From contig JACRIR010000268.1 of assembly GCA_016215705.1 (NCBI GenBank), positions 1 through 24,923 of the forward strand: DNA of 24,923 bases. Direction: 5' to 3'. The stretch comes from Candidatus Poribacteria bacterium (lineage in GTDB: Bacteria > Abyssobacteria > SURF-5). The notes under the pieces were generated by a model. It made no database searches. It had not been told where the DNA came from and saw only the letters and a list, made by a program, of their open reading frames with translations. This document shows, piece after piece, positions 3,252 to 24,470 of the stretch. Position 1 is the stretch's first letter; the number at the start of each line of letters is the position of its first letter. The translations under genes were made by a program, and so were the position numbers.

Positions 3252-3290
3252 AAATTCGGGGACACCATGCGGCATGGTGTCCCCGAATTT
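3252..3290. repeat. REP-like palindrome (short subtype)
   Basis: This is a perfect 39-nt palindrome with arms AAATTCGGGGACACCATG and the reverse complement, around a 3-nt centre. It begins 2 nt after the stop codon of the aminotransferase gene on the minus strand. It could fold as a strong RNA hairpin between the aminotransferase and hydrolase cistrons, without a T-tract. The same core is at 9563-9605. Confidence 0.8.
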
Positions 3291-9562: not shown

Positions 9563-9605
9563 GCTTATTCGGGGACACCATGCGGCATGGTGTCCCCGAA
9601 TAAGC
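9563..9605. repeat. REP-like palindrome (short subtype) in the SDR leader
   Basis: A 43-nt perfect palindrome whose arms begin GCTTATTCGGGGACACCATG, with a 3-nt centre (CGG). It shares its core with 3252-3290. It lies between the predicted promoter and the ribosome-binding site of the SDR gene, so the hairpin would be in the mRNA leader. Confidence 0.8.
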
Positions 9606-9646
9606 GCGGGTTTCCCGGGCAAACCTGAAAGAGAGGAGAGCATCTC

Positions 9647-11940: not shown

Positions 11941-14304
11941 ATGATAGAGATACGATTTCACGGCAGGGGTGGTCAGGGAGCCGTAATCGCGGCAAAGGTT
12001 TTGGCGGACGCCTTCTTTCGTGAAGGCAAACATGTGCAATCTTTCCCGGTCTTCGGCACGGAGAGACGGGGCGCTCCGATCGCGGCGTTCACCCGTGTCG
12101 CCGACGAGCACATACTGGTCAGATGCAACATTTACAAGCCCGATATAGTGGTCGTTCTCGATCCCCTCTTGCTGAACGAAACAGATGTCACCGCCGGCCT
12201 CAAGAGCGGCGGCGTGATCCTGCTCAATTGGCTCCTCGATGATGCTTCAATCCCCGATCTCGGCCCATATGATATTACCGTAGTCAACGCCACCGATATA
12301 GCCGTGCACAGGGGACTGGGCACAAGGATCAATCCGATCGTCAACACCTCAGTCCTGGGGGCCTTCGCGCGAGTGACAGGACTCGTGGGCATTGAATCCG
12401 TCGTCGAGTGCATCCGCGACGGAGTCCCCAAGGGAAAGGACAAGAATGCGGATGCGGCGCGCGAAGCGTATGAGCAGGCGCGGGTCGTACGAAGAGCGAC
12501 GGCCAAGAGCGCAAAGCCTCAGAAACCGCGCCCGGCGGCGGGAATAGTTTTCAGTCGGCGCTCCGAAATGCCCTTGGGCGACATTGCGAGGGGAGGAGTG
12601 TCGTGCGGTCCCACCGGAAGCTGGCGGCACATGCGGCCTCGTTACGAAAATAAGCTCTCGCCCTGCACGGCTGCCTGTCCTGCGGGCGAGAGCGTCGAGG
12701 CCTGGCTCAGGTCTGTCGAGGCGGGAGAATATGCAGAAGCCTGCCGGCTTATCAAATCCGTCAATCCGCTCCCCCGCGTATGCGGCAGGGTTTGTTTCCA
12801 TCCATGCGAGTCCAAATGCAATCGCGAAAAATTCGACATGCCGGTCGCGATCAATTCGCTTGAACGATTCGTGGCCGACCACGCGAAAGCGCTCGGTGGC
12901 GCTTCGCCACCCAAAGCCGTGGAGACCGGAAAGAGGGTCGGAATAATAGGCTCCGGGCCTGCCGGACTGTCATGCGCGTATCATCTGGCGCTTCGCGGAC
13001 ATTCGGTGACCATCTATGAGGCCGAAGGAAAACTCGGCGGCCTGCTCAGGTACGGCATCCCCGCGTATCGGTTGCCAAAGGACGTTCTCGACGAGGAGAT
13101 AGAGGACATCATCCGGCTGGGCATCGAGGTGCGCACAGGCGCGCGTATCGAAGACCTCAATGAGCTTCGCGGGCTTCATGACGTATTATTCGTGGCCACG
13201 GGCCTCGGAAAGGAAAACAGGCTCCACATTCCCGGTGAGGAAGGCAAAGGCGTCATGGGCGCGCTTAAACTGCTCAGACTGGTAAGCTGCGGCAGCCGGC
13301 CGGACGTGGGCGGGAAAGCGCTGATAGTCGGCGGAGGCAACGCCGCAGTCGACGCCGCGCGATCCGCCCTCAGGCTTGGCGCAAGGCCGACCATAATCTA
13401 CAGGCGCTCTCGCGAACAAATGCCGGCCTATGCCCCGGAGGTCGAGGAGGCTCAAAAAGAGGGCGTGAACATAATCTATCTCGCGCAGCCCGTGGAAATT
13501 GTCCGCAAGGACGGCCGTGTAATCGGCTGCGCTTGCGTGCGAAATCAGCTTGGTGAAGCCGACGACTCGGGCCGCGGCCGCCCGGCGCCTCTCGAGGGCT
13601 CGAACTTCTTTGTCGAGGCTGATTCCGTTATCGTTGCGGCGGGCGAACATCCCGACGATCAGCTCATAGATGCTTATTCGGGGACACCTTGCCGTCCCGC
13701 CAAGGCGGGATCCCCGAATAAGCTAACGCTCGATGACAACGGAGCATTCCGTATTCTTTCAGACGTCGTTTTCGCCGGCGGCGACCTGATCTCGGCCACG
13801 AGAACCGTCGCGCATGCCATAGGCTCCGGACGGCAGGCGGCGCTCCTGCTCGACAAAAGTCTCGGCCGCTCTTCGGGGACTGTCCCTATTTACGGGCCGC
13901 GTCTTCCAGGCCGTAGAATAGGGACTGTCCCCGACTCAGGAGAGAATCACGCCGAATCCCGCAACGGCGAGGCAGTCGGATTCGAGAATATCAACCTCGA
14001 TTATTTTCGCGCCGGCCCCCGCGTTCCAACGCCGATGCTGCCCATCCGCGAACGAGAAGGAAACTTTGTGGAAATCATCTCCGGCGTCGGGAGCGAAGCA
14101 GCCGCTCGGGAGGCCGGAAGGTGCTTCCACTGTGGCGCATGTATATCATGCGATAACTGCTACGTTTACTGCCCGGACCTTGCCATCAAGAAACTCCCTG
14201 ACGGCGCATACTCGATCGATTACGATTATTGCAAGGGCTGCGGACTGTGCGTGCACGAATGTCCGCGCAATGCCATGGCGATAGCAGAGGAAGCAAGCAG
14301 ATGA
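11941..14304 (+). CDS. 2-oxoacid:ferredoxin oxidoreductase gamma subunit fused to a GltD-like FAD/NAD(P) module and a ferredoxin (delta) tail
   Basis: The chain is 787 aa with three parts. Residues 1-183 are the gamma subunit (starting [19 protein letters not shown], with [12 protein letters not shown]). Residues ~235-640 resemble GltD/NfnB: Fe-S cysteines C242, C246, C281, C285, C289 and C293, FAD motif GSGPAG (337-342), NAD(P) motif GGGNAAVD (464-471), and VFAGGD (610-615). Residues ~690-787 are the delta-type ferredoxin with C728/731/734/737/740/744 and C764/767/770/774. The expected job is to pass electrons from keto acid oxidation to NAD(P), or back. Related unfused NAD(P)-oxidoreductase partners are known for 2-oxoglutarate:ferredoxin oxidoreductases. 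GGAGGTGA sits just before the ATG. Residues 578-595 and 645-665 are encoded by palindromic repeats, apparently tolerated insertions. Confidence 0.9.
13672..13723 (+). repeat. REP-like palindrome (middle subtype) inside the fused oxidoreductase gene
   Basis: A 52-nt element with arms GCTTATTCGGGG and CCCCGAATAAGC and an inner GTCCCGCC-AA-GGCGGGA hairpin. It is read in frame as [18 protein letters not shown] (residues 578-595), between the conserved [10 protein letters not shown] and the LTLDDNGAF segment. Its reverse complement recurs, nearly identical, at 16401-16454. Confidence 0.8.
13873..13934 (+). repeat. REP-like palindrome (long subtype) inside the fused oxidoreductase gene
   Basis: Arms TCGGGGACTGTCCCTATT and AATAGGGACTGTCCCCGA enclose TACGGGC...GCCGTAG. 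It is read in frame as [20 protein letters not shown] (residues 645-664). The same subtype occurs at 17855-17910 in a spacer. Confidence 0.8.
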
Positions 14305-17475: not shown

Positions 17476-17666
17476 CCGCGAGGCTGCAATCAAGAAGAAT
17501 CTTCGATCACTGCTGTCCAAAACAAAAAAACTTGAACCGCAGAGGGCGCGGAGGGGCGCGGAGAAAAACGGTAGAAAGTCAATGTCCTCAGCGTCCTCTG
17601 TACTACTCACATTCGAAATCTTGAATTCCTGTCGCGATTCTCATGACACACCGTATGAAACTCACA

Positions 17667-17688
17667 CGGGCGCGATTCATCGCGCCCG
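17667..17688. repeat. Perfect GC-rich hairpin
   Basis: CGGGCGCGAT and ATCGCGCCCG form a 10-bp stem with a 2-nt loop about 190 nt after the aminotransferase stop. No T-tract follows, so it is a palindromic repeat or a weak terminator. Confidence 0.5.
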
Positions 17689-17728
17689 ATATGGCGAGTC
17701 CTTAGGAGCCTCTGACCACACATGAGGA

Positions 17729-17950: not shown

Positions 17951-18073
17951 TTAGCCGCGTCGTTCCGACCGCTTCTTGGTTACTTCCTTTTTCTTAAGTT
18001 TGTAACCCTTGAGCCGTCGATTAAATTCGTAGAGGTCACTAAGCTGTTTCAGCGCTCTATTGATCTTCTTCAT
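17951..18073 (-). CDS. Small basic 40-residue protein overlapping the nucleotidyltransferase gene
   Basis: ATG at 18073 opens a 40-codon frame, MKKINRALKQLSDLYEFNRR followed by a very basic half (LKGYKLKKKEVTKKRSERRG). Its start lies 17 nt inside the end of the nucleotidyltransferase gene, in another frame, a typical translationally coupled arrangement. The N-terminal half looks helical and the C-terminal half is a Lys/Arg tail that could bind nucleic acid. I do not recognise the family. The MITE-like element begins 5 nt after the stop. It is too short to be sure that it is expressed. Confidence 0.5.
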   Translation of the reverse strand: MKKINRALKQLSDLYEFNRRLKGYKLKKKEVTKKRSERRG

Positions 18074-18515
18074 TTTCAAGCTTCTCTATATCAGCCTGGT
18101 CCTGTTTCGAATCTCGCATTCTCTTGAGCCATATCAAATCCTTCCGGCTTGCTATTCTTACTTTCCCTTGATCCGATTCGGCTTCAACAGAATCTCTGAT
18201 TATTCTCCTAATCTCCTCGGTTCGAGCAAGAAGAATATCGATGATCATCTCATCTCCGTTACTCGCCTTCAAAAAGCGATGAAGCTCTATGGGGATTGTG
18301 CTGAATGTCCGCGGAGAAATTGATTCGGAATACCCTTCCTTCTCCAAAATGCCTTTGGTCTTCTCAAAGTCGTCAGAATCAACCAGTAGGTCGATGTCCC
18401 TTGTGAAGCGCGGTTCGGCGTAGAATGCCATCGCCACTCCCCCGACGAGAGCGTACCTCACGCTGCGCGTTTCCAACTCCTTCACCAAATGATTGAATTC
18501 TTCAAATACGTTCAT
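18057..18515 (-). CDS. MNT-type nucleotidyltransferase (DUF6036/AbiEii-like)
   Basis: The protein is 152 aa. YALVGGVAMAFYAEPRFTRD then IDLLV (21-45) has the GG (25-26) and the D-x-D pair (D40, D42) of the polymerase-beta nucleotidyltransferase fold, and D93 in MIIDILLA is the third carboxylate. KDLIWLKR near the end matches the usual tail of this family. Such small enzymes transfer nucleotides (AMP, UMP or NMPs) to proteins or tRNAs, and several are parts of toxin-antitoxin or abortive-infection pairs. Here the only possible partner is the 40-residue ORF that overlaps its end. The ribosome-binding site is weak (AAGG). A housekeeping nucleotidyltransferase cannot be excluded. Confidence 0.8.
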   Translation of the reverse strand: MNVFEEFNHLVKELETRSVRYALVGGVAMAFYAEPRFTRDIDLLVDSDDFEKTKGILEKEGYSESISPRTFSTIPIELHRFLKASNGDEMIIDILLARTEEIRRIIRDSVEAESDQGKVRIASRKDLIWLKRMRDSKQDQADIEKLENEEDQ

Positions 18516-18881: not shown

Positions 18882-21800
18882 TTATTTAATCCTGACGCAG
18901 CGAAAACCCATGTCGAAGTACCGAGTGTTCGGGAAGTCCCCGGTACGGAAAGAGCACCGGGCAGCCTCACGAATGTCGCCCCACGAGCCGCCCCGGAGCA
19001 CCGGGCCAGCCTCATCAGGCGTGAAATCAACTCTCTGCTTCTTGGATTCATAATCCGAGCATGTCCATTCATCCACATTTCCTGCTAAATCAGTCACGCC
19101 TTCCGGCGTTGCTCCTTTGGCAAAGATCCCAGCCGCAGAGGTCTTGCGGATTTCTGATTCCCGCGTGTTGCAGCAATTCTCGCACCAAGGACCCCACGGA
19201 TACTCTCGCCCTTCCTTGCCCGCAGCGGCCGCCTGCCATTCCTGCTCGGTCGGCAGCCTGTATGTGTACCCATCCTTCCTCGAAACGCCAAGCCATCGGC
19301 AGAAAGCATCCGCCTCGTACCAACTCACTCCCACAGCCGGTGAGTTCGGGCATTTCCACGCCCGGTCATGCCAGTAGTCAGGCTCTTGACGCTTCTCCTT
19401 ATCCACCCACTTCCATCCTTCCGGTGTCCAGAACTCTTCCTTCTTGTATCCCCCTGCCTTGATAAACTCATCATACCATTGATTGGTAACCGGATACTTA
19501 CTTATTTCAAAAGCTGAAAGGCTCGCCTTGCCCAACTCTTTGAGCTTGTATTTGCTCCCTTCAATCGCGACAAACTCCTTCAAATCCCGCGTATCGCCCA
19601 ACCACCCCAGCGTATCGCCCGCATCAGCCAGAACCTTTGCCTCTTCCTGTTCTTTGATTACCTCTAACAAGCGCTCTTGAGCTTTTTCTGCCACCTGTTT
19701 GTCTCGTCTGTCTGGTTGGATGTCAAACAACGCTTTCGCCGCCAAACGCCAATGTCTAAAGGGTGGCTGCTCATCCCGTTTCAGTTCATCTTCCACTATG
19801 CCGTTGGCCTCAGCTCGATTCGAGTTGCTCAGATGACCAATAAACAGTCGAAGCGTTTCCTCAAACCATTCATCGTCCCAATACTTCTTAATGGCCTGTG
19901 CAAACTCCTGCGACCGCTTCCGCTCAACTATCTGTCTTGCCGCCAGGAATTCCTGAAAGCTCAAGTGCCAGAAGCTGTGCTCTGCGCCGTCCAACCTGAG
20001 AAGTCCGCAGTGCTGCTCGATTTCATCGAACTCTTCTCCCAATCGCGCAATATACTGGCGTTCTGTCTCGTCTGCTTTCGCAGGGTGTTGTTCTGTCATG
20101 AGGTCGACAGCGAATCTCTTGCTGAACGTCTTTTGTTTCTCGCGATGGCTCTCATAGGCTATCTTCATCAGAAGGTCTAAGACGGCGCCGGCGTTATCGT
20201 GAAAACGTTTATATATCAGGTTGCTGACAATTCTCTCGTACAATTCGGCCCGCTGTTCCGGCAGTTTCTTATCGTAATGATACAGTATGCAGGCAGCGGT
20301 CAACATAAGCGGTGTGCTCATTAGCTCTTCGCCGCGCTGATGCTCATATATCTCGGAGAACATATCTTCCTTGCTTTTCCCCTTACCAAGCAACTCAGGG
20401 TCCCACTCGAACCATTTTCCAATGAAGAGCCGCACCTGGTCGCTGTTCAAGGAACTGATGTCCGCACACTTGTCGCCGAGTCTGTCGGTGACTGTCGCGT
20501 CGATTCCGTGCGGTCGGCCCGACAGAATCATTTTGCTCCGTGGAAATTCGCTTCTGAAGGACACCAGACAATCAATTGTGAACTCCCGGAATGGCGCCTC
20601 GATCTCATCGAGTCCGTCAACAAGGAATATCGCCTTGCCTTCTCGACAGAATGCTTTGATTAATTCAATATCCAATCCGTCACACTTCCGTCGAAAATAT
20701 TCGGTCAAAATCTCTTCCGCTGCCTGCGCGCCCGGAACCAATCCCTTCCTCCGAGGAATGATCTCGGGGATGTCTCTCAGAAATATCAGAACCGGCAAAT
20801 ACTCGTTGAGTCCGTATTCATTCTTTTTCCTGATGATGGAGTAAGCCAGATGCTTCATCAGCGTCGTCTTACCCGAACCCGCCTGGCCCCTTATGACCAG
20901 CCACTCGCTCGAGGCTGCCAACTCTTCAATATCAACTCCTTCTCGTTGTCTTTTGCCCATGCGAATCTTGATGCCCTCATTTGTTGCCTTCATCTCTTCC
21001 ATGCGAGTTGTGTTGAGCGGGATGAACATTTCCGGAAGCTTCAGGCTGATGATCGAACTGTCTCTGCTGTCAACAAGTTTGCTGATATCCATCCTCTCGC
21101 ATTGCGTTATGATCCAGTCTTTGTAGTTATCCGGGATTTCGAGCGAGAGGATGGGAACTCCTCGTTCTGAAGACGCCGCCTGCTCGTGAACTATCCGCTC
21201 ACACACGTCACCTGCAATGCTCTTGATCTCTTGCGCCACTAGAACTTCCTCTTGCAGATATACTCGCAATCCGATAATCAGAGGTTCAAGCGCGCAAGCA
21301 GAGGGTGATTCCTCCAGTAGCTCCAAAACCGCCCTGCCACGTCCTGCGGCTGCCGCAAGAATGCAGGAATCTATCACTTGACTCAAATGGTCTTCGGTCT
21401 TCTTCGGATCAGCGAGAACTTTCTCGATTTCAGTCCATTTGTCTCCGTTACCTTTTACCTCTGAGGACGCAAGATCGTCATAGAAGGCCGACATGAATCT
21501 CACAACTGCTTCCAGCCTGCCGGAGGGTTGCCCCCTCCTTCGCATAAGATGATAGATGTTGTACATTCGCTCTGTAACCTGATACCACTTCTTCTTTCCC
21601 TTCTGTCTTGCAGCTTCGACCATCCCTCTTTCAACAAGCCTGTTTAGGAAAGAACTGGCTTTGTTGATTTCGATTCTCGCGGCGGTTGCGACTTCCCGCG
21701 CCGTGGCGGGGTCCCACAAGTCCGCCAATGCCACAAATACTCTGCGCTCGATCGCAGGCAACCCGTCGAGATGGCCCTTGAAATACTCCGTGTGATCATC

Positions 21801-22616
21801 CACAAGCTGAGCTATGTCCTTCATTAGTTCAGGAAAAGAAGTCCTGGCGGCAAGCGTGGAAAAAACGGCCACGAGGCGAGCATTGCCGCCCGTTAATATT
21901 TGGATCGGCCTTACATACTGGTCAATCGGCTCCTCTCCAGTCATCGCCTTCCACAAAGCCGAACATTCCTCGATATTCAATGGTTGCAACTCATGTATCT
22001 TGAACATCTGATACATGGCCTTTCCGGAACTTTCAATCTCCTCAAACCGGCTCACTGCTGTCCCCAAAAGCATCAGCCGCGGCTCGTTCTGCAACGTGTG
22101 GCGCAGCACCCATGCGTCGTCATCACTCATCTGCTCACCTAATAGCATGTTAAGGTTCTCGACGACGAGCAGGATGCGCTTTCCCTGTTCGTCAGCAAAA
22201 TCCATCAACTGCGCCAACGCGCGGTGGCGCAGTCTGTCCTCATCGCTTTCATTGACCAGTTCTCGGTAAGTCCTTTCCCATCCTTCCACCCCTGTTTGTT
22301 TCGCCAAATGAAAGAGCGCCTCAAGCCACAACTCTCCGGCAGAATGAACATTGTAGCTTTCCTCGGAAAATATCAGCGGATACCACTTCTCCCTGAGTCC
22401 AGTCTTCTCTTTGATTTCCGCGGCCACTCGAAGGGCCAAAGTAGTCTTGCCCGTTCCGCGGGCTCCAATAATGATAACGTGCTGGTTGGACTGTCCCGTA
22501 TTTTGACTTATGGTCTCCAGGATCAGATGCAAGTCCATATGGCGCGCGACAAATAATCGAGTCAGTTCTTCAGCCGACAGAAAAGCAGGATTATATTTCA
22601 TAACTCTCGTGGCCAT
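18882..22616 (-). CDS. Dual-NTPase STAND-type protein: ATPase-winged helix, NACHT NTPase and FGE/C-type-lectin domain
   Basis: The protein is 1244 aa. Residues 1-280: AAA/Orc-like ATPase with Walker A GARGTGKT (51-58) and Walker B ILLVVEN (148-154). 285-355: winged helix (AREVATAARI...LVERGMVEA). 360-560: helical linker. 575-900: NACHT NTPase with Walker A GQAGSGKTT (577-585), Walker B AIFLVDGLDEI (662-672), SGR sensor (699-701) and the WHLSFQEFLAA helix (883-893) typical of NACHT. 900-1012: helical/HEAT-like. 1013-1244: formylglycine-generating-enzyme fold (YPVTNQWYDEF, VGVSWYEADAFCRWL, YRLPTEQEWQAAA, DLAGNVDEW, LRGGSW, GFRCVR). The two catalytic cysteines of FGE are absent around RGGSWGDIREAARC, so this end is more likely a binding (lectin-like) domain. 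It starts 3 nt after the upstream AAA gene. STAND NTPases commonly sense invaders and trigger effectors, so defence is inferred. Confidence 0.88.
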   Translation of the reverse strand: MATRVMKYNPAFLSAEELTRLFVARHMDLHLILETISQNTGQSNQHVIIIGARGTGKTTLALRVAAEIKEKTGLREKWYPLIFSEESYNVHSAGELWLEALFHLAKQTGVEGWERTYRELVNESDEDRLRHRALAQLMDFADEQGKRILLVVENLNMLLGEQMSDDDAWVLRHTLQNEPRLMLLGTAVSRFEEIESSGKAMYQMFKIHELQPLNIEECSALWKAMTGEEPIDQYVRPIQILTGGNARLVAVFSTLAARTSFPELMKDIAQLVDDHTEYFKGHLDGLPAIERRVFVALADLWDPATAREVATAARIEINKASSFLNRLVERGMVEAARQKGKKKWYQVTERMYNIYHLMRRRGQPSGRLEAVVRFMSAFYDDLASSEVKGNGDKWTEIEKVLADPKKTEDHLSQVIDSCILAAAAGRGRAVLELLEESPSACALEPLIIGLRVYLQEEVLVAQEIKSIAGDVCERIVHEQAASSERGVPILSLEIPDNYKDWIITQCERMDISKLVDSRDSSIISLKLPEMFIPLNTTRMEEMKATNEGIKIRMGKRQREGVDIEELAASSEWLVIRGQAGSGKTTLMKHLAYSIIRKKNEYGLNEYLPVLIFLRDIPEIIPRRKGLVPGAQAAEEILTEYFRRKCDGLDIELIKAFCREGKAIFLVDGLDEIEAPFREFTIDCLVSFRSEFPRSKMILSGRPHGIDATVTDRLGDKCADISSLNSDQVRLFIGKWFEWDPELLGKGKSKEDMFSEIYEHQRGEELMSTPLMLTAACILYHYDKKLPEQRAELYERIVSNLIYKRFHDNAGAVLDLLMKIAYESHREKQKTFSKRFAVDLMTEQHPAKADETERQYIARLGEEFDEIEQHCGLLRLDGAEHSFWHLSFQEFLAARQIVERKRSQEFAQAIKKYWDDEWFEETLRLFIGHLSNSNRAEANGIVEDELKRDEQPPFRHWRLAAKALFDIQPDRRDKQVAEKAQERLLEVIKEQEEAKVLADAGDTLGWLGDTRDLKEFVAIEGSKYKLKELGKASLSAFEISKYPVTNQWYDEFIKAGGYKKEEFWTPEGWKWVDKEKRQEPDYWHDRAWKCPNSPAVGVSWYEADAFCRWLGVSRKDGYTYRLPTEQEWQAAAAGKEGREYPWGPWCENCCNTRESEIRKTSAAGIFAKGATPEGVTDLAGNVDEWTCSDYESKKQRVDFTPDEAGPVLRGGSWGDIREAARCSFRTGDFPNTRYFDMGFRCVRIK

Positions 22617-22619
22617 AAC

Positions 22620-23870
22620 TTACATCTTTCTGTCCGAGGCGGGAATGAAGAACAATCTGTGCCGTCCGTCCCACCAGTCCCTTATCAACGTCGATTTGAA
22701 TGCAAAACCGGTCGGCGCGCGCGACAGATAGCCGTCATACTCGAGGATATCCATTATTTCGCGCAACACGTCATTCGGTCTTCGATTCTTGAATTCATAT
22801 CCCCTTAACAAAATGCGGGCGGAATCCATCGACAAATGACCTGTCACCGCCGCCTCAGTCAAGAGTTCCAAAGCAAGCGGAAACAATTCCTCGCCCAGCA
22901 CCCATCCCAGACGTTCTTCGAGTTGGGCCAGTTCTGCGTGCCCTCTTGTGCTTAGCATCCGGTCATTGTAAACCCCCAAAACATCATCCCTCGAACACTC
23001 CATATTGCCTTTGCATCTGCAATTATCATAAATGTGTTCAAAGAACATCTGAACGTGTTGCGGTATGAAACATCCCAGTTTCTCCAAAACTCGCTCCTTT
23101 GCCCCTTCCTCAAATGTGACACCGGCCCCGTTTGCTAACGCCTGAAGACAACCCTCGGCCGTATCGGTATCCCATGGCTTCAGCTCGAAGGGCGTAAAGG
23201 TTGTCACCGTGCCGCTGAGACCCGCCTGCCTGAGAATCGGCTCCAGTCCGATGGAACCGGTCAGCACGATTCTGATCGTGCCTTTATGCTTGATGCTCGA
23301 CTCTCGGAACCAACTCATGAATTCGTCCGCCAATTGTAACCGCTCAGATGTTATTCTGTGATCTGCCCCCTTCAGTATGCGGTTCACAAGGAGCGTTACC
23401 TCATCGATGAAGATCGCAACCGGCTTCTCGCATTCACCCAGCGCACACAAGAGATTCTCCCCTTTTGCTTTCCAGTTTCCGGCGGAGACCCCTGCGTTTA
23501 GCGCAATCTTGATGTCGTGAACGTCGAGAGAATCAATGGAGACTTCCACTCTTTCAAGAATGTTACTGAATACTCGCTTTGTCTTTTGCCAAATACTCGC
23601 GTGGGGGCGAGTGGCAACACTCAATTCCACTACCGCGTCGGAGGGCGATTTCGATGCTTGCAGGTCCAAATATAAGCACACATAGCGATCTCCCAAACGT
23701 CGGGCCACCTCGTGCAAAAGGCTTGTCTTCCCCATCCTTCTTGGAGCCAGAAGCTGAATGTGCGCGCCTTCATCCAATTTCTCGATAAAAAGCTCGATTT
23801 CCCTTTCTCGGTCCCAAAAAAAATCCCTCCCCGTCACGTAGTTGTTGTGCGCCGGCCTCAGCTTCTCCAT
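22620..23870 (-). CDS. AAA ATPase (archaeal-type ATPase family) of the NTPase operon
   Basis: The protein is 416 aa. FFWDREREIELFIEKLDEGA leads into Walker A LAPRRMGKTS (41-50). Walker B is VAIFIDEV (151-158), sensor 1 LTGS (203-206), and the C-terminal third is helical with a winged-helix-like end (ARILLRGYEF...GYLSRAPTGFAF). This is the arrangement of the archaeal-type P-loop ATPases often found beside toxins, nucleases or STAND proteins. GGGAGG 7 nt upstream supports the ATG. It is the first gene of a two-gene operon: the 1244-aa protein starts 3 nt after its stop. The two ATPases may act together, for example as loader and sensor (inference). Its promoter and operator-like sites lie just upstream. 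Confidence 0.85.
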   Translation of the reverse strand: MEKLRPAHNNYVTGRDFFWDREREIELFIEKLDEGAHIQLLAPRRMGKTSLLHEVARRLGDRYVCLYLDLQASKSPSDAVVELSVATRPHASIWQKTKRVFSNILERVEVSIDSLDVHDIKIALNAGVSAGNWKAKGENLLCALGECEKPVAIFIDEVTLLVNRILKGADHRITSERLQLADEFMSWFRESSIKHKGTIRIVLTGSIGLEPILRQAGLSGTVTTFTPFELKPWDTDTAEGCLQALANGAGVTFEEGAKERVLEKLGCFIPQHVQMFFEHIYDNCRCKGNMECSRDDVLGVYNDRMLSTRGHAELAQLEERLGWVLGEELFPLALELLTEAAVTGHLSMDSARILLRGYEFKNRRPNDVLREIMDILEYDGYLSRAPTGFAFKSTLIRDWWDGRHRLFFIPASDRKM

Positions 23871-24427: not shown

Positions 24428-24470
24428 GGAAAATCGGGGACATGATGCCCCATCGTGTCCCCGATTTTCC
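24428..24470. repeat. REP-like palindrome (variant of short subtype)
   Basis: GGAAAATCGGGGACATGATG, CCC, CATCGTGTCCCCGATTTTCC: a 43-nt palindrome with outer arms matching perfectly and one mismatch in the inner stem. It belongs to the same family as 3252-3290 and 9563-9605. Confidence 0.75.

What the first reader, a model, noticed from the sequence alone, without database searches (positions are those of the whole stretch)
18882..23870. Candidate undescribed two-component NTPase conflict system
Three separate NTP-binding modules in two adjacent genes (AAA ATPase; then ATPase-winged helix and NACHT in one chain) end in an FGE/C-type-lectin domain. No nuclease, protease or other known effector is visible, so the mode of action is open: the lectin-like end may sense or bind, and the first ATPase may be a loader or effector. 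I know of STAND proteins with such sensor domains, but not this exact pair.
Basis: partly seen in the sequence, partly recalled or inferred. Interest (0 to 1): 0.85.

Follow-up and report, generated by a model that had tools for sequence, protein, structure and literature searches.

The report
Hypermutable immune-type sensor on ATPase pair
A widespread but unnamed pair of ATPase genes has, in this genome, lost its usual repeat-type sensor and gained a different one, closely related to a sensor that the same genome rewrites by targeted mutation; this links an uncharacterised two-gene machine to immune-like receptors of bacteria.

Summary
Gene A (22620-23870, minus strand) is a STAND/ORC-type ATPase with winged helix; gene B (18882-22616) is ORC-type ATPase, winged helix, NACHT and FGE. 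Comparison shows that gene B is a chimera.

(1) Gene A plus the first ~480 aa of B are a conserved two-gene operon: A lies directly upstream of B in 74 of 89 relatives from many phyla, with no third shared gene. Relatives carry TPRs on B (61 of 67 scanned); none of 90 carries NACHT-FGE. The pair matches no PADLOC model beyond the P-loop.

(2) B keeps the tail of a TPR-type B (aa 427-487), then continues as a NACHT-FGE module, 67% identical to a second protein of the same genome that has a phosphoesterase front and sits in a complete diversity-generating retroelement (DGR). The window FGE bears the DGR mutation fingerprint, but its non-adenine changes show it is no longer refreshed from the surviving template.

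Best reading: an NLR-like receptor; variable FGE senses, NACHT switches, and the output slot holds an ORC-type ATPase working with ATPase A. STAND-FGE-DGR receptors are known; this output pair and the sensor swap look new. Biochemical output and anti-phage role are inferred.

The parts
22620..23870 (-). Gene A: STAND/ORC-type ATPase with C-terminal winged helix, 416 aa, no further domain
   Evidence: AlphaFold2 pLDDT 90.6; 2qen Z 26.1, 2fna Z 25.3
23718..23750 (-). Gene A Walker A, LAPRRMGKTSL (GKT in 65 of 65 relatives)
23397..23420 (-). Gene A Walker B, VAIFIDEV (D-E in 65 of 65 relatives)
18882..22616 (-). Gene B: ORC-like ATPase, winged helix, relic TPR-type tail, NACHT, FGE; 1244 aa
22437..22469 (-). 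Gene B ORC-domain Walker A, IGARGTGKTTL
22149..22178 (-). Gene B ORC-domain Walker B position, RILLVVENLN: E-N instead of D-E, N in 91 of 91 family members
21546..21767 (-). Gene B winged helix (aa 284-357)
   Evidence: Pfam TrmB / DUF7342 hits
21156..21338 (-). Relic of the C-terminal tail of a TPR-type gene B (aa 427-487); the TPR array that normally precedes it is missing
   Evidence: matches 51 of 83 complete relatives, always within 40 aa of their C-terminus
18885..21155 (-). NACHT-FGE receptor module (aa 488-1243), 67% identical to the DGR target on contig C52 of the same genome
20409..20903 (-). NACHT domain (aa 572-736), Walker A GQAGSGKTT and Walker B FLVDGLDE intact
18894..19532 (-). 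FGE (C-type-lectin fold) domain, aa 1029-1241
   Evidence: Pfam PF03781; solved relatives incl. Treponema DGR variable protein TvpA 2y3c
18890..19001 (-). Variable region (VR) homologous to the DGR template on C52: 20 of 32 template-A sites changed, 13 of 80 other sites

Best explanation
An NLR-like receptor operon made by fusing two existing systems. Shown by sequence: gene A and the first ~480 aa of gene B are a conserved two-gene STAND/ORC ATPase operon whose usual sensor is a TPR array on B; here the array is gone and a NACHT-FGE receptor of DGR type is joined to the end of B. Inferred: the variable FGE end binds a ligand, most plausibly a foreign protein; NACHT then changes nucleotide state and oligomerises, bringing several ORC-like domains of B together. 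These bind ATP but have an altered Walker B, so they serve mainly as a scaffold for the hydrolysis-competent partner A. The A-B assembly is the output side, because it fills the slot that a phosphoesterase fills in the sister receptor. Most speculative step: the assembly acts on DNA through its winged helices to stop the infected cell or the invader's replication.
For: Conserved A-B order in 74 of 89 loci, gaps -157 to +22 bp; no conserved third gene, so the pair is self-contained; TPRs on 61 of 67 B proteins; the tail relic shows where the new module was joined; the module is shared with a phosphoesterase-NACHT-FGE protein in a complete DGR of the same genome and its family also sits in a DGR in a distant genome; A-site-specific changes in the window VR, 20/32 against 13/80, while A and non-A sites differ equally outside the VR, 0.28 and 0.29; A has intact Walker A/B in 65 of 65, B has E-N at Walker B; A's fold matches STAND ATPases, NLR and CED-4 domains and ORC, B's matches ORC/Cdc6; effectors occupy the N-terminal slot of described STAND-FGS receptors (PMC8195603). 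Plasmid relatives lie beside Pycsar, AbiE, cyclase and methylase genes.
Against: No biochemical or phage data. 15 of 89 B loci have no adjacent A, so B may not always need A. Six of the seven chromosomal loci whose flanks were annotated show mostly metabolic neighbours, not a defence island. The window VR is not cognate to the only template found (13 of 80 non-A changes, 5 mismatches in the last 24 bases), so it is not now being diversified from it. DNA as the target of the output is a guess from fold.
Confidence: 0.45

Rival explanations
1. The A-B pair is a MalT-like switch of normal cell physiology (gene expression or replication control). The NACHT-FGE graft only gives it a new environmental or cell-surface ligand; it is not a defence system.
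For: ATPase - winged helix - TPR is the layout of regulators such as MalT (own knowledge); a MalT complex appears among the fold matches of B (8bob, Z 12.9). Chromosomal neighbours are mostly metabolic. DGR-type targets have also been linked to signal regulation in cyanobacteria (PMC7517822, title and abstract only).
Against: NACHT-FGE-DGR receptors with effector fronts are proposed antigen sensors of conflict systems (PMC8195603, PMC10907252), and plasmid relatives of B lie beside Pycsar, AbiE and cyclase genes.
Confidence: 0.27
2. A and B are adaptors only. They assemble on sensing and recruit an effector encoded elsewhere in the genome, as effector-associated domains do in described systems.
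For: No effector domain in either protein and no conserved neighbour that could be one. Described STAND-FGS systems often use EAD adaptors to recruit effectors (PMC8195603).
Against: No effector-associated domain was recognised in A or B, and the pair has no common partner in 90 loci.
Confidence: 0.2
3. A dead-end fusion or assembly artefact without function.
For: Seen in one genome only; the VR is no longer matched to a template; the assembly has 270 contigs.
Against: The 1244-codon frame is open and the P-loops are intact. The module differs from the C52 copy at about 28% of bases, most at third codon positions (149/109/279 at positions 1/2/3), as in genes under selection and not as in a mis-joined copy.
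Confidence: 0.07

Closest known systems
STAND NTPase-FGS (FGE) receptors with diversity-generating retroelements (Kaur et al. 2021, PMC8195603; Doré et al. 2024, PMC10907252, DGR clade 5D)
   Same: NACHT followed by C-terminal FGE; two or more receptor copies per genome with different N-termini; DGR in the same genome; variable region at the FGE end.
   Different: The N-terminal slot holds an ORC-like ATPase plus winged helix of a separate two-gene operon; no such partner is listed in the sections read. The window VR is not cognate to the surviving template.
Paired Orc/CDC6 operons with KAP NTPase (PMC10853773)
   Same: Two ORC-clade ATPases encoded together, one with intact Walker A but disrupted Walker B; fusion of one of them to NACHT is mentioned.
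   Different: There the active copy is fused to NACHT and a KAP NTPase is part of the operon; here the Walker-B-altered copy is fused, no KAP gene is conserved and the usual sensor is TPR. Whether the proteins are the same families could not be tested (supplement not available).
Avs / bacterial NACHT anti-phage proteins
   Same: Effector - STAND NTPase - sensor logic.
   Different: Only the P-loop matches the Avs4 model (19.5 bits, cut-off 1500); FGE sensor instead of repeats; no nuclease or other known effector.
MalT-type STAND regulators
   Same: ATPase - winged helix - TPR layout of the ordinary gene B.
   Different: A second ATPase gene is linked; B's Walker B is altered; in the window the TPR array is replaced.

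Membership tests
STAND NTPase-FGS/DGR receptors | NACHT or other STAND NTPase with intact P-loop | tested here: met
   NACHT E 1e-14, Walker A and B intact
STAND NTPase-FGS/DGR receptors | C-terminal FGE (C-type-lectin fold) domain | tested here: met
   PF03781 E 1e-45 at aa 1029-1241
STAND NTPase-FGS/DGR receptors | DGR (RT, Avd, TR) beside the gene or elsewhere in the genome | tested here: met
   On C52: bAvd E 1e-17, RVT_1 E 2e-28, TR
STAND NTPase-FGS/DGR receptors | VR differs from its TR at A sites only (active target) | tested here: not met
   C52 VR: 18/32 A, 0/80 other (met). Window VR: 20/32 A but 13/80 other: a former target or target of a lost template, not a current target of this TR
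STAND NTPase-FGS/DGR receptors | N-terminal effector or effector-associated domain (variable, usual) | tested here: inconclusive
   The slot holds an ORC-like ATPase with winged helix; no known effector found by Pfam, NCBIfam or PADLOC
Paired Orc/CDC6 operons with KAP (PMC10853773) | Two ORC-clade ATPase genes in one operon, one with altered Walker B | tested here: met
Paired Orc/CDC6 operons with KAP (PMC10853773) | KAP NTPase as a further member | tested here: not met
   No conserved third gene in 90 loci; in the window the contig ends 1.05 kb upstream of gene A
Paired Orc/CDC6 operons with KAP (PMC10853773) | NACHT fused to the active Orc copy | tested here: not met
   NACHT is on the Walker-B-altered copy
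Named anti-phage systems in PADLOC-DB 2.0.0 | Full-length match of A or B to a system model | tested here: not met
   Only P-loop stretches match
Anti-phage defence systems in general | Protection against phage | not testable with these tools
   Needs an experiment
STAND/ORC-clade NTPases (gene A) | P-loop NTPase of STAND/ORC fold followed by a winged helix | tested here: met
   2qen Z 26.1 over 332 residues, 2fna Z 25.3, ORC2 Z 19.9, CED-4 Z 19.6

The most novel reading that the evidence does not exclude
A DGR has supplied binding diversity to two receptors with different output machines in one cell, a phosphoesterase and a two-ATPase ORC-type assembly. The window operon would be a receptor of adaptive type whose output is a DNA-acting hetero-oligomeric ATPase, a new class of NLR effector, and the many TPR-type A-B pairs would be an unrecognised family of the same machine.
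Probability: 0.2. Interest if true: 0.82.

Novelty: new variant of a known kind. Interest (0 to 1): 0.57.

Why it matters
The gene pair is widespread (187 relatives in one collection scan, at least 12 phyla by record title), yet I found no name or description for it. A natural domain swap now ties it to immune-like receptors and places it on the output side. The swap also shows that a DGR-type sensor module can move between unrelated output machines within one genome, which makes the modular-receptor idea directly testable with chimeras. If the A-B assembly proves to be an effector, it would be a kind of NLR output that is absent from the lists in the papers read.

Tried and rejected
Single-protein scan of genome contigs with gene A found no relatives; an alignment of the better conserved B core was needed. 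An 8-row alignment was too diverse for a pattern scan.

Viral contigs and phage records gave no relatives of the B core, so a phage-borne origin has no support here.

Hidden effector in gene A: the predicted structure is accounted for by STAND ATPase plus winged helix over nearly its whole length. This does not exclude an unusual activity of that fold.

Third component: clustering of neighbouring ORFs gave only small groups without a fixed position.

Second template repeat for the window VR: the own-genome DNA search found only the C52 VR and TR. A contig missing from the assembly could still hold one.

RT on C221: 451 aa, looks like a group II intron RT, not linked to a VR; set aside.

Nucleotidyltransferase downstream (18057-18515): not seen beside other pairs, left out.

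Literature: searches found no paper that describes this A-B operon. Only open-access papers were searched and supplements could not be read, so mention in a supplementary table is not excluded.

Full report
WHAT IS THERE. Gene B reads ORC/AAA_16-like ATPase (aa 28-178), winged helix (284-357), NACHT (572-736), FGE-sulfatase (1029-1241). Gene A is a lone ATPase with weak Pfam hits. PADLOC gives P-loop-level matches only, and NCBIfam gives the same apart from FGE relatives such as EgtB, all below their cut-offs.

GENE A AND THE FRONT OF B ARE A CONSERVED OPERON. A profile of the B core found relatives in 12 of 386 diverse genomes, the window's own included. A pattern scan of genome contigs found 187 relatives, of which 80 loci were fetched: Desulfobacterota, Planctomycetota, Chlorobi, Acidobacteria, Alpha- and Gammaproteobacteria, Hydrogenedentota, Aminicenantes, Latescibacterota, Calditrichota, Chloroflexota, Cyanobacteria, Bacteroidota and others (phyla as read from record titles). 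Of 89 loci with enough upstream sequence, 74 have gene A directly upstream on the same strand at -157 to +22 bp, many overlapping. A and B distances correlate at 0.96 over 65 loci; shared ancestry of the hosts contributes to this figure. No third gene is conserved. In 61 of 67 B proteins the part after the core carries TPRs. A local HMM search found the window's kind of FGE or NACHT in none of the 90 B proteins.

GENE B OF THE WINDOW IS A FUSION. Its aa 427-487 align with the extreme C-terminus of TPR-type B proteins: 51 of 83 match, all within 40 aa of their end. The TPR array was therefore lost but the tail kept, and the next module was joined to the end of a complete B. That module (aa 488-1243) is 67% identical to the back of another protein of the same genome, on contig C52. 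The fronts of the two proteins are unrelated; on C52 it is a calcineurin-like metallophosphoesterase.

THE MODULE BELONGS TO A DGR. On C52 the receptor gene is followed by bAvd, a reverse transcriptase and a template repeat. The C52 variable region differs from the template at 18 of 32 A sites and 0 of 80 other sites, the defining DGR signature. The window region differs at 20 of 32 A sites and 13 of 80 others (p 4e-6), and 13 of 14 template Asn codons are changed. In the module outside the VR, A and non-A sites differ equally (0.28 and 0.29), so the bias is specific to the VR. The window gene was thus diversified by a DGR with a template like this one. Its non-A changes, and 5 mismatches in the last 24 bases, where the homing site of DGRs lies, indicate that this template no longer rewrites it. 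No other template was found in the genome. A NACHT module of the same family occurs in a distant genome within a full DGR with two targets, a TR and two VRs, so the association is not a local accident.

MOTIFS AND FOLDS. Gene A: AlphaFold2 mean pLDDT 90.6; best PDB matches 2qen (Z 26.1, 332 residues, rmsd 3.4) and 2fna (Z 25.3), then NLR and CED-4 domains at Z 19-21. It is a complete STAND/ORC ATPase with winged helix. B core: mean pLDDT 78.7, closest to archaeal ORC2 and Cdc6/Orc1 (Z 17.1 and 16.4). Walker B is D-E in all 65 A proteins; in the B family it is E-N (E in 90 and N in 91 of 91). This suggests that A hydrolyses ATP while B mainly binds it. NACHT has both Walker motifs.

CONTEXT. 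Of seven chromosomal relatives whose flanks were annotated, six lie mostly among metabolic genes and one beside a caspase-FGE gene. On plasmids, B homologues lie beside two nucleotide-cyclase genes and a ThiF gene (Agrobacterium), a Pycsar cyclase and effector plus AbiE (Sphingobium), and dUTPase and DNA methylase genes (Moraxella, where an A gene is also present). That is suggestive of defence, but three cases are no statistic.

HOW IT MOST LIKELY WORKS. Shown: a chimera of a two-ATPase operon and a DGR-type receptor. Inferred: FGE senses, NACHT switches and oligomerises, and the A/B ATPases are the output. The reasons are that they occupy the slot that a phosphoesterase fills in the sister receptor, and that effectors sit there in described STAND-FGS receptors (PMC8195603; PMC10907252). 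The nature of the output is the weakest step. A mixed ORC-type assembly acting on DNA is my preferred guess, from the folds, the winged helices and the contrast between active A and altered B.

COMPARISON AND NOVELTY. STAND-FGS-DGR receptors are known and proposed, without experimental test in the papers read, to be antigen sensors. A 2024 paper reports operons with two Orc/CDC6 proteins, one with a disrupted Walker B, together with a KAP NTPase, and fusion of the active copy to NACHT (PMC10853773). That is the nearest precedent for the pair, but there the other copy is fused, and no KAP gene is conserved here. Whether the proteins belong to the same families could not be tested. I therefore file this as a new variant of a known kind: a known receptor class, a new output partner, and an unnamed but widespread ATPase operon.

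Noticed in passing
window 3254-3288, 9563-9614, 24434-24464; L015:3134-3177, 12210-12253, 17655-17699, 18897-18940: A near-palindromic element of about 43 bp recurs between genes in the window and on contig C52 at up to 98% identity; it looks like a dispersed REP-type repeat and supports that both contigs belong to one genome.
   Followed up: partly
L061:4138-8248: A gene B that ends after the winged helix (458 aa, no TPR), preceded by only a fragment of gene A and followed on the same strand by a caspase - peptidoglycan-binding - FGE gene: perhaps another link between B and an FGE sensor, with the effector on a separate chain.
   Followed up: partly
L043:5118-5810: A RelA/SpoT-domain gene (230 aa) ends directly at the start of gene A in this locus: a possible alarmone-making partner of one A-B pair.
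   Followed up: no
L164:1043-6610; L162:2286-10195; L163:6016-14692: Plasmid homologues of gene B lie beside Pycsar cyclase/effector and AbiE genes (Sphingobium), two cyclases and ThiF (Agrobacterium), and dUTPase and DNA methylase genes (Moraxella).
   Followed up: partly
L160:8493-8612: In the two-target DGR of genome G360 the second variable region seems to carry a one-base shift that ends the frame early, so that target may be broken.
   Followed up: no
window 18057-18515 (-): Small nucleotidyltransferase (152 aa; NTP_transf_5/AbiEii/DUF2204 hits) downstream of gene B on the same strand, without a recognised partner.
   Followed up: no
own genome, contig C221:310-1665 (L016): A second reverse transcriptase (451 aa) that looks like a group II intron RT and not a DGR RT.
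   Followed up: no
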